Shown: positions 3,593 to 50,137 of the stretch, piece after piece | Position numbering within the stretch: the stretch's first letter is position 1 | Layout of the letters: each line of letters starts with the position of its first letter | Assembly (NCBI RefSeq): GCF_000214415.1 | Contig: NC_015562.1 | Location: 1,589,130-1,653,129 of the forward strand | Direction: 5' to 3' | Length of the DNA stretch: 64,000 nt | Origin: Methanotorris igneus Kol 5 | GTDB taxonomy: Archaea; AGJL01; Methanococci; Methanococcales; Methanococcaceae | Program-made: the position numbers and the translations under genes | Notes under the pieces: model-generated | Databases searched by the model: none | Told to the model about the DNA's origin: nothing | Seen by the model: the letters and a program-made list of their open reading frames with translations, nothing else

Positions 3593-3787
3593 TAGTCGTA
3601 TGCGTTAGAGATTGAAATGAACTATTGGTAAATTCTTAAAGATTTATTCCTTATTTCAAATTTTAAGGAAGGATAATGATTATTTAAAAATTCACTAATG
3701 TATAAATAAGTTTAAAAATCCACTGCAACCTTCGGTTGCAGGGAAGTTGAATAACCGTAGGTTATTCAACTATTCCGCACACGACTA
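3593..3787. mobile_element. MITE-like element 1 (TAGTCG ends, TA duplication)
   Basis: The ends are inverted repeats: TAGTCGTATGCG at the left and CGCACACGACTA at the right, each flanked by TA. No reading frame is inside. The right half holds two small palindromes, CTGCAACCTTCGGTTGCAG and GTTGAATAACC..GGTTATTCAAC. It separates EF-2 from EF-1A, which are normally close neighbours. A further right-end-like sequence (CCGCAAACGACCATA) lies just downstream at about 3809-3823. Confidence 0.75.
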
Positions 3788-7386: not shown

Positions 7387-7502
7387 TTGTTCACCTTTAT
7401 TCTTTTTAATTCTAAATTAATGATAAAATTAAAATAAAAAAATTAAGATAAATATAAATTAATGTTTCATAAGTTTTTATCAACTCGCTAATATCTCTAC
7501 AT

Positions 7503-7657
7503 GAAACTTTAAGAAAGTTAAGCAAAACCTTTGTCGGTTTTGCAGCTCGAACCTTACGGTTCGATTAGGCGAAATCAAAGATTTAGTTGAATAACTACGT
7601 TATTCAACTTCCCTGCAACCGAAGGTTGCAGTGGACGCTGCTCGAACCTTCGGTTCG
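7503..7657. repeat. cluster of five miniature palindromes
   Basis: Successive short stem-loops lie almost end to end: GCAAAACC..GGTTTTGC, TCGAACC..GGTTCGA, TTGAATAAC..GTTATTCAA, CTGCAACC..GGTTGCAG and CTCGAACC..GGTTCGA. The same modules recur in other spacers of this window. They do not encode protein and are not followed by T tracts. Confidence 0.7.
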
Positions 7658-7677
7658 ATTTCATCAAAGGGGTGCAT

Positions 7678-8031
7678 TGCCGTTTGAAACTGTTTAATTT
7701 TTCATTGACGAATGTGGACATTAATGTATTTTCGTTTTCGAAATTTTTATATATGCGTTTATATACATGTAAATATAAGGATGATGCCTCTGATGAAGGT
7801 GGATACTGGAGACCTAAGGAGGCGGACTTTACTGAGTGTTAAACCTTATGGGCGGAGTCGGGGTTCTCCCGGAGCGAAGCGACGGGAACTTAAAAACCGT
7901 TAGGTTTTTATGTCCGTGACAGGGATGGAGACCGATGATATGTTCCCGATGAACCCAGAGGGAACTGAGGCCGATGACATCCAAGTCCAACGTGGGCATT
8001 TGTCTATGATTGTTCACGTTGGACAGACCCC
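7678..8031 (+). mobile_element. tnpB-less IS605/IS607-type element with orphan omega-RNA region (copy A)
   Basis: The left end GCCGTTTGAAACTGTTT matches the left end of the solo tnpB element at 48577. The right part matches the last ~200 bases of the IS607 element at 14-16 kb, including the tnpB-tail/RNA segment, the stem-GATGAACCCAGAG-stem motif and a terminal hairpin (GTCCAACGTG..CACGTTGGAC) ending ACAGACCCC. No tnpA and no TnpB catalytic region remain. A near-identical inverted copy lies at 38380-38727. A small open frame in it is only the decayed tnpB tail. It probably encodes a structured RNA. Confidence 0.75.
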
Positions 8032-8051
8032 TCGCTATGCTTGGCAATGCT

Positions 8052-8555
8052 TCATAGATCGCTATCCAATTCACTAATATCTTTACATACACAAAACTCA
8101 CATAATGAATATTCATTTTTTTGCTTATTTTTAACTGGGCAGTAATAAGTATTTCCCTTTTTTATAATTTTCTTTTTTCCAGGGAACACTAAATTTTCGG
8201 GATGAATTGGCTTTTTCGCAATGAAGATTAAGTAAGGGGCTATAATCTTAGACAACCTTATAAATGCATCTTCATTTTCACTGTTCATTTTTTTAAAACT
8301 TTCTATTCTCTCAATTAATTTTTCTAACTTTTCTTCATCAATTTCGAAGGATTCTACTGAGTTTTTATCTCTATTCTTAATTTCATTTAAAACATTATAG
8401 AAATACATTCCAAGTGATTCTAAAAATTCATTTCTATATTGAGGGGGAAGGTATTTTGCATCATTCTCCATGAAACACCTTGCTTTCATCATATCGTATA
8501 TGCTAAATTCTTTGGCTTCTTTTTTTAGTTTTTTGAATAACTCTCTACTATTCAT
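8052..8555 (-). CDS. DUF2115 (UPF0305) family protein
   Basis: A conserved protein of unknown function found mainly in methanogens. The 167 residues are largely helical and charged, and the C-terminus carries a Cys cluster (YYCPVKN..YSLCEFCVCKD) that could bind metal. The start follows AGGGAG. Its 3' end abuts copy A of the orphan RNA element, whose right flank overlaps its last codons. No function is assigned. Confidence 0.6.
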   Translation of the reverse strand: MNSRELFKKLKKEAKEFSIYDMMKARCFMENDAKYLPPQYRNEFLESLGMYFYNVLNEIKNRDKNSVESFEIDEEKLEKLIERIESFKKMNSENEDAFIRLSKIIAPYLIFIAKKPIHPENLVFPGKKKIIKKGNTYYCPVKNKQKNEYSLCEFCVCKDISELDSDL

Positions 8556-14176: not shown

Positions 14177-14806
14177 ATGAGTTTAGAAAGACTATATACG
14201 ATGAAGGAAGCTTGTGAATTGTTAGGAGTTCATATAAAAACACTGCAAAGATGGGATAGAGAGGGAAAGATAAAGTGTGTTAGAACTGTGGGGGGAAAGA
14301 GGAGGGTTCCAGAGAGTGAAATAAAACGAATATTAGGAATTAAAGATAAAGAACAAAGAAAAATTATCGGCTATGCAAGGGTTTCATCTAACACACAAAA
14401 AGACGATTTAGAAAGGCAAATAGACGCGATAAAATCATACGCAAAAGATAGGGACTGGAATATAGAGATATTAAAAGATGTTGGTAGTGGATTAAGCGAA
14501 AAAAGAAAAAACTACAGAAAACTTTTAAAAATGGTTATAAACCGGGAGGTTGAGAAAGTAATAATTGCCTATCCAGATAGATTGACAAGATTTGGCTTTG
14601 AAACATTAAAAGAATTCTTTAAATCTTACGGAACGGAGGTAATCGTTATTAATAAGAAATGTAAGGCTCCACAAGAAGAGTTAGTAGAAGATTTAATAAC
14701 CATTATCTCCTATTTCGCAAGAAAATTATACGGAATGCGTTCCCACAAATATAAAAAACTTATAAAGACAGTTAAAGAAATTGTGGGCGAGAATAATGCA
14801 AAATAA
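14177..14806 (+). CDS. tnpA: IS607-family serine recombinase (TnpA)
   Basis: A 209-residue transposase. Residues 1-55 form a MerR-like helix-turn-helix ([27 protein letters not shown]). A resolvase-type catalytic domain follows, with the nucleophilic serine in IIGYARVSS, then LERQ and the [17 protein letters not shown] arginine region. It ends with the coiled C-terminus typical of IS607 rather than a long resolvase HTH. GGTGAGTA precedes the start. It overlaps tnpB by about 11 bases. Confidence 0.92.
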
Positions 14807-16076
14807 AAACAAACTTCCATCCGAAATCGTATTAACTTACAAGATTAAACATAATTACGATTTAAAAAACTTGTTAGATGGATTTATGAGTACCTCTCAG
14901 AAAGCAGTTGATATTATCTGGGAAAATATCAACTGGAAAGAAAAACAAGTTAAACATCGATTTAAATCTAAAAATAAATACAAATACTACACAACCACCC
15001 GATTAATCCCAGAAATTCCAAAAGATAAGGATTTCAAAAGAGAACTAAGAAATTATTTACTAAATGGATGGAATTTTGCTTCTCATTATGTTGATGGAGC
15101 TATTAAAGTGGCTTATTCAACAATAGAGAGTTGGAAATCGAATTATTTAGATGGTAAAAGAAAAAGAAATAAACCGACATTTAAAAGACCTTTTGTTAGA
15201 GTTAAAAATACCCTAATAAAATACGATAAAGAAAATGGAACGATAAGGATAACGATAAAAGCGAGGAGAGAGTATTTAATCTTAGATATTAAAAATGAAT
15301 GGTTTTTCGAAAAAATTAAAGGTTTTGACATTGGAGAGATAATATTAAAAGACAGTGAAGCATTAATAACCTTTAAAAAACCTTTAAATATATTTGATAA
15401 AAAAGTCGTTATCGGTGTAGATAGCAATCTAAAATCCTTAGATTTATTCCATCCAGAAGAAGGGTGGATTAGAATTGATTTATCTGAACTGCGTAGAATA
15501 AAGAATGTTTATGATGTTATTATCGATAAGTTAAAGTCGATTTATAAAAAAGCCCCAAAAAGAATCAGTATCTTGCTAAAAAAGTATTATAATAGGAGAA
15601 AAAATCGAGTTGAAGATTTTATTAACAAATTAACCTCCCAATTGTCAAAGCTTTTCCCAGATGCAATTTTTATCTTTGAGGATTTGGATAAGCCCAATAT
15701 GTATAAAAATTCGAACTTTAACAGAGATTTAGATAGAACGAGTTGGAGAGAGATAGCGAAAAAGTTAGAGTATAAGAGTATTGTTTTTTACGTTAATCCT
15801 CACTATACTTCAAAAACCTGTCCTATATGCGGGAGTAAAATGGAGTCCCAAGAGGGACAGGTTGTAAAATGTGAAAAATGTGGAGTTTTCAATAGGCAGT
15901 TCGTCGGCTCTTTTAATATCTTTAAAAGAGGAGTTAAATTAGTTAAAAAACTCTTAGGCGGAGTTGGGGTTCTCCCGGAGCGAAGCGACGGGAACTTAAA
16001 AACCGTTAGGTTTTTATGTCCGTGGCTGGGGTGGAGGTCGATGATTTACTCTCCAATGAACCCAGAGGAGAGTTGA
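14796..16076 (+). CDS. tnpB: TnpB, RNA-guided nuclease homologue (non-canonical RuvC-III)
   Basis: A 426-residue TnpB from the ATG at 14796 (an earlier TTG at 14781 lies inside tnpA). RuvC-I Asp is in [12 protein letters not shown], RuvC-II Glu in [10 protein letters not shown], and the zinc ribbon is [15 protein letters not shown]. The segment that normally reads DRDxNAAxNI is [11 protein letters not shown] here, so the usual third catalytic Asp is missing. The last ~28 residues come from a frame shifted by a 47-base palindromic insertion (15971-16017), so this tail is not native. Family TnpBs cut DNA guided by an RNA from the element's 3' end; whether this copy cuts is doubtful. Confidence 0.85.
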
Positions 16077-16169
16077 GACCGATGTCACCCAAGTTCATCG
16101 TGAGGGTTAATTTAAGCGGAAGCACTTTTATTCACATTTACTCCTAAATCCTCACGATGGACAGACCCC
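15955..16169 (+). ncRNA. putative omega/reRNA of the IS607 element
   Basis: The 3' part of tnpB and its downstream sequence are GC-rich and strongly self-complementary: CCCG..CGGG, AAAAACC..GGTTTTT, CTCTCC-AATGAACCCAGA-GGAGAG, and a long terminal stem. The same structure without tnpB is kept at 7.7 and 38.4 kb. In the family such transcripts run to the element's right end and take their guide from the flanking DNA. RNA boundaries are inferred. Confidence 0.6.
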
Positions 16170-25012: not shown

Positions 25013-25112
25013 TACCATTTGGATGCAACCAAACCGTAAGGTTCGGGCTGCATCCACTGCAACTGTAGTTGCAGGGAAGCTGAATAATCATAAATTATTC
25101 AACTAAACTGTA
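25013..25112. repeat. cluster of miniature palindromes
   Basis: Contains CATCC..GGATG, AACC-GTAA-GGTT, CTGCAAC..GTTGCAG and TTGAATAAT..ATTATTCAA in the order seen in other spacers, upstream of the ABCE1 gene. The remaining spacer up to 25300 is AT-rich and holds no gene that I can see. Confidence 0.6.
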
Positions 25113-25300
25113 ATTTTTGCTCAACCTTTTTAAGGTTGCATTGCTAACCTTGACATTAAATTATCTCATTTCAATTCTGTTTTGAAAAATAAATTATTTG
25201 AGTTTCAAATTATGGACATCCTAAAAGAGTTTTTTGAACGATTTAGTTTTAATTGTTTAATTATTGATATTTTTTATTAATTCTCAATTTAATTGTTTGG

Positions 25301-36807: not shown

Positions 36808-37123
36808 TAGTCAAGTGCATTATATAGTCGTGTGCGTTAGAAATTGGAATAAAGTGTTAGTAAATTTTTAAAGATTTATGACTTATTTAAAATTTTTTGG
36901 CAAAACTGAAAGTTTTGCCGTATATTTTAAGAAAGGATAAGGACTATTTGGAAATTCATTGGTATATAAATAAGTTTAAAAATCCACTGCAACCTTCGAT
37001 TGCAGGGAAGTTGAATAACTATATTATTCAACTATTCCGCACACGACTATAATTAAACTAAAACTGCAATAAATTTTAACGGCAAAATCAAAGGTTTTGC
37101 CGTATGTCTTCTGCACATGACTA
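36808..37123. mobile_element. nested MITE-like elements (one inside another)
   Basis: The outer pair is TAGTCAAGTGCA at 36808 and TGCACATGACTA ending 37123, each flanked by TA. The inner pair is TAGTCGTGTGCG at 36825 and CGCACACGACTA ending 37049, also flanked by TA. Removing the inner copy leaves an outer copy of about 90 bases with a GGCAAAATCAAAGGTTTTGCC hairpin. The inner copy carries the CTGCAACC/GGTTGCAG-like and TTGAATAA modules of element 1. No coding potential. Confidence 0.7.
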
Positions 37124-38379: not shown

Positions 38380-38727
38380 GGATCTGTCCAACGTGAACAA
38401 TCATAGACAAATGTCCACGTTGGACTTGGATGTCATCAGCCTCAGTTCCCTCTGGGTTCATCGGGAACATATCATCGGTCTCCATCCCTGTCACGGACAT
38501 AAAAACCTAACGGTTTTTAAGTTCCCGTCGCTTCGCTCCGGGAGAACCCCAACTCCACCCATAGGTTTAACACTCAGTAAAGTCCGCCTCCTTAGGTCTC
38601 CAGTATCCACCTTCATCAGAGGCATCATCCTTATAGTTATATATATAAACTCATATATAAAAATTTTGAAAACGAAAATACATTAATGTCCACATTCGTC
38701 AATGAAAAATTAAACAGTTTCAAACGG
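38380..38727 (-). mobile_element. tnpB-less IS605/IS607-type element with orphan omega-RNA region (copy B)
   Basis: Inverse-oriented, near-identical copy of 7678-8031. It keeps the left end GCCGTTTGAAAC (38716-38727), the 47-base palindromic module (38499-38545), the GATGAACCCAGAG stem motif and the terminal hairpin GTCCAACGTG..CACGTTGGAC (from about 38385). It has inserted next to a GGCAAAATCC hairpin that belongs to a MITE-like right end (ACATGACTATA at 38761). No protein is encoded. The spacer 38240-38379 shows nothing else. Confidence 0.75.
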
Positions 38728-38800
38728 CAAAATCCAAAGGTTTTGCGTATGTCTTCTACACATGACTATAATTTTAAATAGTTGTTGGGATGGGTTTGTT

Positions 38801-48576: not shown

Positions 48577-48696
48577 GCCGTTTGAAACTGTTTAATTATA
48601 CATAGACATTTATGAACATTTGTGAGTAAATATTGAAGAAATTTTTAAATATTTGATAATACTATAATCCTACTAAAAAAACAAACAACGATTACT

Positions 48697-49935
48697 ATGC
48701 CCAATAAGACAAAATCAAAAGGGACTCAGGAATTATCCTATCAAGTCGTTCTATCTTACAAAGTTAGTCACAACTATCCACTTAAAACGTTCTTAATCGA
48801 ATGCAAAGATAAGTTAAACGAATGCATAGACATGATTTGGAATAACATAGAATACACTAAAAAAGATAAACCAAAATTGCCAAAATCAAACGAATTCAAA
48901 AGAAATCTAAGAAACAAACTCTTAGAAAATTGGAGTTATGCCTCTCACTACATCGATGGGATTATAAAAACCTCCTATTCCATCCTACAAAGTTGGGCTT
49001 CGAACTACAAAAGAGGTTATAGAACTAAAACAAAACCAGTAGTAGAGAGGTTATTCGTTAGAGTTAAAACAACCCTAATAAAATACGACAAAGAAAGAGC
49101 GGAGATAAGAATAACGATAAAACCAAGAAAAGAGTATTTAACCTTAAACATCAAAAATGAATGGTTCTTCGATAAGGTTAAGGACTTAACAATTGGAGAA
49201 ATTATTTTAAAGGAAAATGAAGCGTTTTTAACCTTCAAAGATAATCTAAACTATTCAGACAAAGATATAATCGTTGGAGTAGATAGCAATCTAAAATCCC
49301 TCGACTTATTCCATCCGATAGAGGGTTGGATAAGGATAGATTTAACCGAATTACACCGACTTAAAGAAGTTTATGATAAAAAGATTGATGGGCTTAAAAA
49401 ACTGCTTAAAAAATGTCCTTTAAGAGTTTTGAGAAAGATAAATAGGTTATTCGAAAGAAGGAGAAATAGGGTTAAGGACTTTTTACACAAACTTACAACA
49501 CAATTATCTCGACTATTTCCGGATGCAATTTTTGTCTTCGAGGATTTGAATAAGAGAAGGATGTATAAAAATAAACACTTCAATAGAAGAATAGATAGAG
49601 CGAATTGGAATGGAATAATCGAAAAAATAAGTTATAAGGCGGTTGTTATCTTAGTTAATCCTGCCTACACTTCAACGACCTGTCCTATATGCGGGAGTAG
49701 AATGGAGTCCCAAGAAGGGCAGGTTGTTTGCTATAATTGTTCAAACTCTTTTAATCGCCAAGTAGTTGGCTGTTTTAATATTTTTAAACGAGGTTTGGGT
49801 GCAATCAAAAGATTTATGGGTGGCTCTGGGGTTACCACGACAGGGGCAGAGGTCTCTGCTAAGGGACTGATGACGCCCAATCCCAACGTAGTTTATTATG
49901 TGGATTTAAATGGCAAATATCTTAAATGTATATAA
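48697..49935 (+). CDS. tnpB: TnpB of the solo element (non-canonical RuvC-III)
   Basis: A 412-residue TnpB. RuvC-I Asp is in [13 protein letters not shown], RuvC-II Glu in FVFEDLNKRRM, and the zinc ribbon is CPICGSRM..VVCYNCSN. The third catalytic position is again altered: FNRQVVGCFNIFKRG in place of DRDxNAAxNI. The tail GVTTTGAEVSAKGLMTPNPNVVYYVDLNG is encoded by the right-end structure and resembles the native tail of the 32.7-kb pseudogene. The frame is intact. Activity as a nuclease is uncertain; RNA-guided binding remains possible. Confidence 0.85.
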   Translation: MPNKTKSKGTQELSYQVVLSYKVSHNYPLKTFLIECKDKLNECIDMIWNNIEYTKKDKPKLPKSNEFKRNLRNKLLENWSYASHYIDGIIKTSYSILQSWASNYKRGYRTKTKPVVERLFVRVKTTLIKYDKERAEIRITIKPRKEYLTLNIKNEWFFDKVKDLTIGEIILKENEAFLTFKDNLNYSDKDIIVGVDSNLKSLDLFHPIEGWIRIDLTELHRLKEVYDKKIDGLKKLLKKCPLRVLRKINRLFERRRNRVKDFLHKLTTQLSRLFPDAIFVFEDLNKRRMYKNKHFNRRIDRANWNGIIEKISYKAVVILVNPAYTSTTCPICGSRMESQEGQVVCYNCSNSFNRQVVGCFNIFKRGLGAIKRFMGGSGVTTTGAEVSAKGLMTPNPNVVYYVDLNGKYLKCI

Positions 49936-49967
49936 TTGTCCATATTTGACTACGTTGGGAGAACCCC
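49740..49967 (+). ncRNA. putative omega/reRNA of the solo tnpB element
   Basis: GC-rich, self-complementary end of the element overlapping the tnpB 3' end, including GCAGAG..CTCTGC and the CCCAACGTAG terminal stem. It is placed by analogy to the structured 3' end of the other copies; exact ends unknown. The spacer 49968-50137 holds only a degenerate GGCAAAACC hairpin. Confidence 0.45.
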
Positions 49968-50137
49968 ACAAACTATTTATGGGTAATCTTGAATTAACAT
50001 GAGCGAATTTTAATTATTGTGATTAGTGCTGTAATTCGTAGAACGATATAATAATGTAATACATAATCGATATATCCAAATTTAGCATAAATGGCAAAAC
50101 CGAAGGTTTTTACCACATATTTTTTAAAGGTGAGACA

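What the first reader, a model, noticed from the sequence alone, without database searches (positions are those of the whole stretch)
7678..8031. Orphan omega-RNA-like element, copy A
A ~350-bp element keeps both ends of an IS605/IS607-type transposon and the complete structured 3' RNA region, yet has no protein gene. Selection or mobilisation has preserved the RNA part, so it could supply guide RNAs in trans to TnpB proteins encoded elsewhere, with a guide taken from its right flank (starting near 8032, which overlaps the DUF2115 3' end).
Basis: partly seen in the sequence, partly recalled or inferred. Interest (0 to 1): 0.75.

Follow-up and report, generated by a model that had tools for sequence, protein, structure and literature searches.

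The report
Protein-less transposons carrying TnpB guide-RNA genes
This 352-bp piece of archaeal DNA is a tiny jumping element that has lost its proteins but kept the structured guide-RNA gene used by the nuclease-like protein TnpB, and 30 such orphans outnumber the 11 copies that still carry TnpB, which suggests that the RNA itself is what selection preserves.

Summary
The element is 7680-8031 (352 bp): an IS607-type left end, an archaeal promoter-like TATA box, a structured RNA region and an intact right end, with no gene. The genome has 41 such RNA loci: 11 linked to tnpB and 30 orphans in three size families. Orphans also occur in relatives from two families, mostly in genomes that also encode this TnpB. 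The RNA fold is supported by compensatory changes, including among orphans alone. All sampled TnpB genes fold a further 5' hairpin (P0) from their zinc-ribbon codons. Two separately derived orphan families kept P0 while coding sequence on both sides was deleted; the MITE2 family lacks it. A near-identical copy interrupts a CBS-domain gene whose ortholog in a sister species is uninterrupted, so the family moved recently. The junction is one shared CC, as for IS607. Sites are G-CC in 36 of 38 cases, a candidate TAM. Most likely it is a MITE moved by TnpA in trans whose omega-RNA arms TnpB in trans against empty sites. Expression, TnpB binding and cleavage were not tested. These TnpBs have Gln in place of the canonical RuvC-III Asp, so cleavage is not assured. 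Standalone guide RNAs are already known in kind; this is a new variant.

The parts
7680..8031 (+). whole non-autonomous element (MITE1 family, copy A), 352 bp including the CC core at the left and CCCC at the right
   Evidence: copies share exactly this stretch; junction logic
7680..7745 (+). IS607-like left end CCGTTTGAAACTGTTTAATT..., shared with the TnpB-only elements (group B) and orphans of related genomes
7746..7753 (+). archaeal TATA box TTTATATA preceded by CGAAATT; at position 67-69 of the element in MITE1, MITE2, the group B TnpB element and several orphans of relatives. Predicted start of transcription about 7774-7778
   Evidence: sequence; start site inferred
7783..7823 (+). P0 stem-loop (GAUGCCUC...GAGGC, inner AGGU/ACCU), matching in position and fold the tnpB zinc-ribbon coding sequence
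7860..7865 (+). 5' strand of closing stem P1 (GGGGUU), pairs with 8026-8031
7867..7913 (+). optional 47-bp module (two hairpins), present or absent in members of several element families
7923..7982 (+). P3 (GGAUG/CAUCC, GACC/GGYY, GUUCCC/GGGAAC)
   Evidence: compensatory changes
7985..8024 (+). P4 terminal hairpin
   Evidence: 9 of 14 pairs with compensatory change in the mixed set, 8 of 14 in orphans
8026..8031 (+). 3' strand of P1 and right end of the element (GACCCC)
8032..8051 (+). predicted 20-nt guide (right flank), half of a palindromic repeat; DUF2115 stop codon follows at 8052
   Evidence: position only
38380..38729 (-). orphan copy B, 97% identical, right end degenerate (GATCCT)
14177..14806 (+). 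tnpA of an autonomous IS607 element (serine recombinase with MerR helix-turn-helix)
   Evidence: Pfam
14781..16158 (+). tnpB and omega-RNA region up to the right end region of the autonomous element (group A)
48589..49970 (+). TnpB-only element (group B) with the same left end as the orphans, and its omega-RNA and right end

Best explanation
The element is a miniature, non-autonomous IS607-type transposon that carries a complete omega-RNA gene. Shown: ends, CC junction, mobility of the family, conserved RNA structure, promoter-like box, and full-length relatives with tnpA and tnpB in the same genome. Inferred: TnpA from the full-length copies moves it. Transcription from its own TATA box gives an RNA of about 255 nt plus a guide read from the right flank. 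A TnpB made elsewhere takes this RNA and recognises the empty site (GCC next to the guide match). In a polyploid methanogen this would bias repair towards chromosomes that carry the element, so the orphan is kept and spread as an RNA-only selfish element.
For: Both ends and no gene. 41 RNA loci in the genome, 30 without tnpB. P3/P4 compensatory changes: 16 of 29 pairs in the mixed set, 13 of 29 pairs and 86 cells in orphans alone against 34.9 in shuffles. P0: in nine orphans 103 of 108 possible pairs form, against 75.1 when arms are exchanged, 4 of 100,000 shuffles as high. P0 is present in all sampled TnpB genes and kept in two separately derived orphan families with deletions on both sides. 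TATA box at nearly the same place in orphans of different families. Insertion into a CBS gene against an uninterrupted ortholog. G before the CC core in 36 of 38 sites where 13.5% is expected. Every genome with four or more RNA loci also has this TnpB, decayed in one incomplete assembly. TnpB and reRNA expressed from separate plasmids form an active complex in ISDra2 (PMC8612924).
Against: No transcription, binding or cleavage data. MITE2, the largest orphan family here, has no P0, so P0 is dispensable for spread. The TnpBs have Gln at the canonical RuvC-III Asp in all 16 aligned proteins. A few genomes have one or two related RNA loci without this TnpB (G002, G007, G011, G013, G031). The G-CC preference could be a target preference of TnpA rather than a TAM. 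The P4 3' arm is also part of the transposon end, so its conservation is not only about RNA.
Confidence: 0.58

Rival explanations
1. Plain MITE: only the DNA ends matter, TnpA moves it, and the RNA region is a passenger left by deletion of the coding part.
For: Only tnpA is needed for IS607 transposition (PMC6188088). Many copies are recent and nearly identical. The P4 arm lies in the right end. MITE2 has lost P0.
Against: Compensatory changes in P3 and P0, well away from the right end, within protein-less copies; independent orphan families all keep P1, P3 and P4, and two keep P0 between two deletions; conserved promoter position.
Confidence: 0.25
2. RNA-guided binder instead of nuclease: these TnpBs (Asp, Glu, then Gln in place of the third acid) bind but do not cut. 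Orphan RNAs then direct binding next to insertion sites, for example to silence flanking genes or to block TnpA at empty or donor sites.
For: RuvC-III Asp replaced by Gln in all 16 proteins while the RuvC-I Asp and RuvC-II Glu are kept. TnpB-derived RNA-guided transcription factors (TldR) exist (PMC13418256, abstract).
Against: A conserved extra Asp in RuvC-I (KSLD) might compensate, and clades with rearranged RuvC-III are not expected a priori to be inactive (PMC10278001). Multicopy mobile elements with a different guide at each site look like selfish elements rather than regulators.
Confidence: 0.13
3. Orphan RNAs act as decoys that titrate TnpB, parasitising rather than using it.
For: 30 orphan loci against 11 tnpB-linked ones.
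Against: The guide boundary and candidate TAM context are kept in orphans, which a decoy does not need.
Confidence: 0.04

Closest known systems
TnpB reRNA/omega-RNA of ISDra2 (PMC8612924) and of IS607 elements (RAGATH-18 derived, PMC11061315)
   Same: Structured RNA at the 3' end of the element, ends at the right end, guide read from the right flank, overlaps tnpB in autonomous copies (as ISDra2 does)
   Different: Here most loci have no tnpB. The RNA extends to a P0 hairpin within the tnpB zinc-ribbon codons. No Rfam family matches. The candidate TAM is GCC, against AGGAG/GAGGG for the tested IS607 TnpBs and TTGAT for ISDra2
Standalone omega-RNAs of IscB (HEARO; my recollection of Weinberg 2009 and Altae-Tran 2021) and the 36% of RAGATH-18 RNAs not next to an IS607 TnpB (64% are adjacent, PMC11061315)
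   Same: Guide-RNA loci without their protein gene
   Different: HEARO carries its guide at the 5' end and belongs to IscB. Here whole mobile families with both transposon ends, empty-site evidence and compensatory changes within orphans are shown in archaea
IS607-family MITEs and other non-autonomous IS derivatives (my general knowledge)
   Same: Both ends kept, transposase gene lost, recent multicopy spread, CC core
   Different: They keep a promoter and a full guide-RNA scaffold far inside the ends
TnpB gene drive of IS200/IS605 in multicopy plasmids (PMC11870625)
   Same: Proposed logic: cleave element-free copies so that the element fixes in a multicopy replicon
   Different: There the IS carries tnpB itself; here the RNA-only element would borrow it, and the replicon would be a polyploid chromosome

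Membership tests
IS607-type non-autonomous element (MITE) | both transposon ends present, no transposase gene | tested here: met
IS607-type non-autonomous element (MITE) | insertion at a GG/CC dinucleotide without target duplication | tested here: met
   sister-species uninterrupted gene and palindromic repeat restored at one CC; IS607 rule from PMC6188088
IS607-type non-autonomous element (MITE) | a serine-recombinase TnpA with related ends encoded in the same genome | tested here: met
   tnpA at 14177-14806; at least four elements of about 2.0 kb with related ends
IS607-type non-autonomous element (MITE) | that TnpA actually moves it | not testable with these tools
   needs a transposition assay
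TnpB omega-RNA/reRNA | structured RNA at the 3' end of tnpB reaching the right end of the element | tested here: met
   same helices in tnpB-bearing copies
TnpB omega-RNA/reRNA | conserved secondary structure | tested here: met
TnpB omega-RNA/reRNA | guide taken from the right flank next to a fixed motif at the left flank | tested here: inconclusive
   right boundary constant and G-CC at left in 36/38, but no targeting assay
TnpB omega-RNA/reRNA | transcribed and bound by TnpB | not testable with these tools
   only a conserved TATA box
RAGATH-18 RNA | match to a described covariance model | tested here: inconclusive
   no Rfam 15 family matches except chance hits; whether RAGATH-18 is in that library was not checked
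HEARO (IscB omega-RNA) | Rfam RF02033 match, guide at the 5' end | tested here: not met
   no match; variable flank after the conserved end is at the 3' side
TnpB nuclease (the trans partner) | canonical RuvC Asp-Glu-Asp triad | tested here: not met
   third residue is Gln in all 16 aligned proteins; first two kept

The most novel reading that the evidence does not exclude
Long-lived lineages of RNA-only transposons exist in which selection acts on the guide RNA alone. They borrow both TnpA and TnpB in trans and home into element-free copies of a polyploid archaeal chromosome. Their TnpB partner forms part of the RNA scaffold from its own zinc-ribbon codons.
Probability: 0.35. Interest if true: 0.8.

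Novelty: new variant of a known kind. Interest (0 to 1): 0.57.

Why it matters
If right, the unit of selection in TnpB systems can be the guide RNA gene alone. Orphan loci would form a natural multi-guide array addressed to one shared effector, comparable to CRISPR spacers dispersed by transposition. It gives a tractable test of whether TnpB protects elements that do not encode it, and an unusual case of protein codons (the zinc ribbon) apparently doubling as a guide-RNA domain.

Tried and rejected
Rfam (gathering and E up to 10): no family. Exact left-end pattern in genome contigs: no hit, probably because the own genome is withheld and relatives differ. Direct empty-site comparison at copy A: the sister genome lacks the element, but the locus also differs by another insertion and duplication, so the junction had to be taken from another copy and from the palindromic repeat. 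Tree of the RNAs: orphans form one side of a branch with support 99 when P3 and P4 are used (four rows set apart: two recent MITE3 derivatives and two decayed rows), but P3 alone does not resolve this (5 changes, p-AU 0.49). A single ancient origin of all orphans is therefore not claimed; MITE1-like and MITE2-like orphans differ in P3 and may have separate origins. A match of the guide elsewhere: nine repeats differ from it by three bases; no regulatory meaning is claimed. Kink-turn reading of the UGAUGA in P0: no matching D-box, dropped. Structure prediction was not run, because no coordinates are returned with which to measure the active site.

Full report
Setting. The window is part of a single 1,854,197-bp contig. 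Relatives named in public records are Methanocaldococcus and Methanothermococcus; from memory the size fits Methanotorris igneus, which was not verified.

The element. Alignment of copies fixes the ends at 7680 and 8031. From left to right it has an IS607-like left end, a TATA box (7746-7753), a hairpin P0 (7783-7823), a closing stem P1 (7860-7865 with 8026-8031) that encloses an optional 47-bp module, P3 and P4, and the right end GGACAGACCCC. No protein gene is present. The whole RNA region folds with z = -3.5.

Copies in the genome. A covariance model of P3 and P4 finds 41 loci. tblastn of the upstream 2 kb links 11 of them to tnpB (six near-identical group A copies, one truncated, four group B) and 30 to none. 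Orphans fall into MITE1 (about 352 or 305 bp, 10 loci, one of which lacks the left part), MITE2 (mostly about 260 bp, 17 loci), MITE3 (about 410-430 bp, 2 loci) and one decayed locus.

Relatives. 19 of 41 genomes searched have the RNA and 15 have a TnpB of this family. Genomes with four or more RNA loci all have the TnpB, decayed in one incomplete assembly; G002, G007, G011, G013 and G031 have one or two loci and none. Orphans in the Methanocaldococcus-like genomes have the same left end, TATA position, P0, P1, P3 and P4.

RNA structure. In a mixed set 16 of 29 pairs show changes on both sides, 94% of cells pair, and slid controls give 30-44%. In orphans alone, 13 pairs and 86 cells show such changes against 34.9 in shuffles. 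The second alignment was fitted to the model and leans towards it.

P0. Every sampled tnpB gene folds ACCUG(U/C)CC...GG(A/G)CAGGU from its zinc-ribbon codons (L197 shows the same sequence although the pattern missed it; L187 is a decayed gene with one changed base in the outer stem). TGC occurs with GGG, TGT with GGA or GGG, and TGC with GGA never; the sequences are related, so this is suggestive only. MITE1-type and MITE3 orphans keep P0, although coding sequence both upstream and downstream of it is gone and the distance to P1 is shorter. In nine orphans P0 arms match their own partners in 103 of 108 positions against 75 after exchange (arms were placed by hand). MITE2 lacks P0, so it is not essential for spread.

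Mobility and target. A MITE1 copy (L126) splits a CBS-domain gene. Joining its flanks at one CC restores the frame, and the sister genome has the uninterrupted gene with no gap at that point. For element A the joined flanks restore a palindrome found at nine other places. IS607 inserts at GG without duplication (PMC6188088), which is CC on this strand. The base before CC is G in 36 of 38 own sites and 16 of 19 in relatives, against 13.5% of NCC trinucleotides in the window. A TAM is one reading; TnpA preference or insertion into hairpin repeats that end in GCC is another.

The partner. TnpA is a MerR-type serine recombinase; TnpB has OrfB_IS605 and TNB domains. By alignment with ISDra2 TnpB the third RuvC acid is Gln in all 16 proteins, while the first Asp, the Glu and an extra Asp (KSLD) are invariant. 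Clades with rearranged RuvC-III are known and not presumed inactive (PMC10278001). Cleavage is therefore an open step in the proposed mechanism.

Mechanism. Best reading: TnpA moves the element, its promoter makes an RNA with a site-specific guide, TnpB supplied in trans uses it on empty copies of the site, and repair restores or spreads the element. The retention logic is that proposed for ISDra2 (PMC8612924) and shown as a drive in plasmids (PMC11870625). Polyploidy of methanogens is my background knowledge.

Novelty. Standalone guide-RNA loci are known in kind: 36% of RAGATH-18 RNAs are not next to an IS607 TnpB (from the 64% figure in PMC11061315), and IscB omega-RNAs stand alone (memory). 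New here are the families of RNA-only IS607 elements in archaea, the compensatory changes within them, the zinc-ribbon-encoded P0, and their excess over tnpB-bearing copies. Searches of open-access papers found no description, but subscription papers were not covered.

Noticed in passing
window 7867-7913; also L031-L041, L125-L142, L155-L164, L174, L188: A 47-bp two-hairpin module sits at one fixed place in the RNA and is present in some and absent in other members of MITE1 and of both TnpB groups; it shifts the tnpB frame and changes the TnpB C-terminus. This suggests exchange of the module between elements.
   Followed up: partly
window 14781-16073 and 48697-49932 (TnpB): Invariant Gln replaces the canonical RuvC-III Asp in this TnpB family in all 16 proteins aligned; an extra Asp in RuvC-I is invariant.
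   Followed up: partly
window 8032-8051 and joined flanks of element A; G000 copies at L234-L242: Element A split a palindromic repeat (GCACTGCCTCGCTACGCTCGGCAGTGC type) with nine other genomic copies, which match its guide with three mismatches next to GCC.
   Followed up: partly
left flanks of L005, L009, L018, L031, L150, L153: Several insertions lie right after hairpin repeats ending in GGTTTTGCC or GGATTTTGCC.
   Followed up: no
window 7483-7510 against 8069-8100: The 3' end of the DUF2115 gene seems partly duplicated on the far side of the inserted region, and the protein ends DSDL instead of the sister species' version.
   Followed up: partly
window 7522-7660; also 3719-3772, 25019-25116, 36983-37034: Cluster of short inverted repeats to the left of element A, repeated elsewhere in the window.
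   Followed up: no
L190-L192 (G029): These orphans carry a short inverted piece of tnpB between promoter and RNA, a trace of their origin from a TnpB element.
   Followed up: no
L135 (own genome): A group A element is inserted exactly at the CCCC right end of a group B-type element.
   Followed up: no
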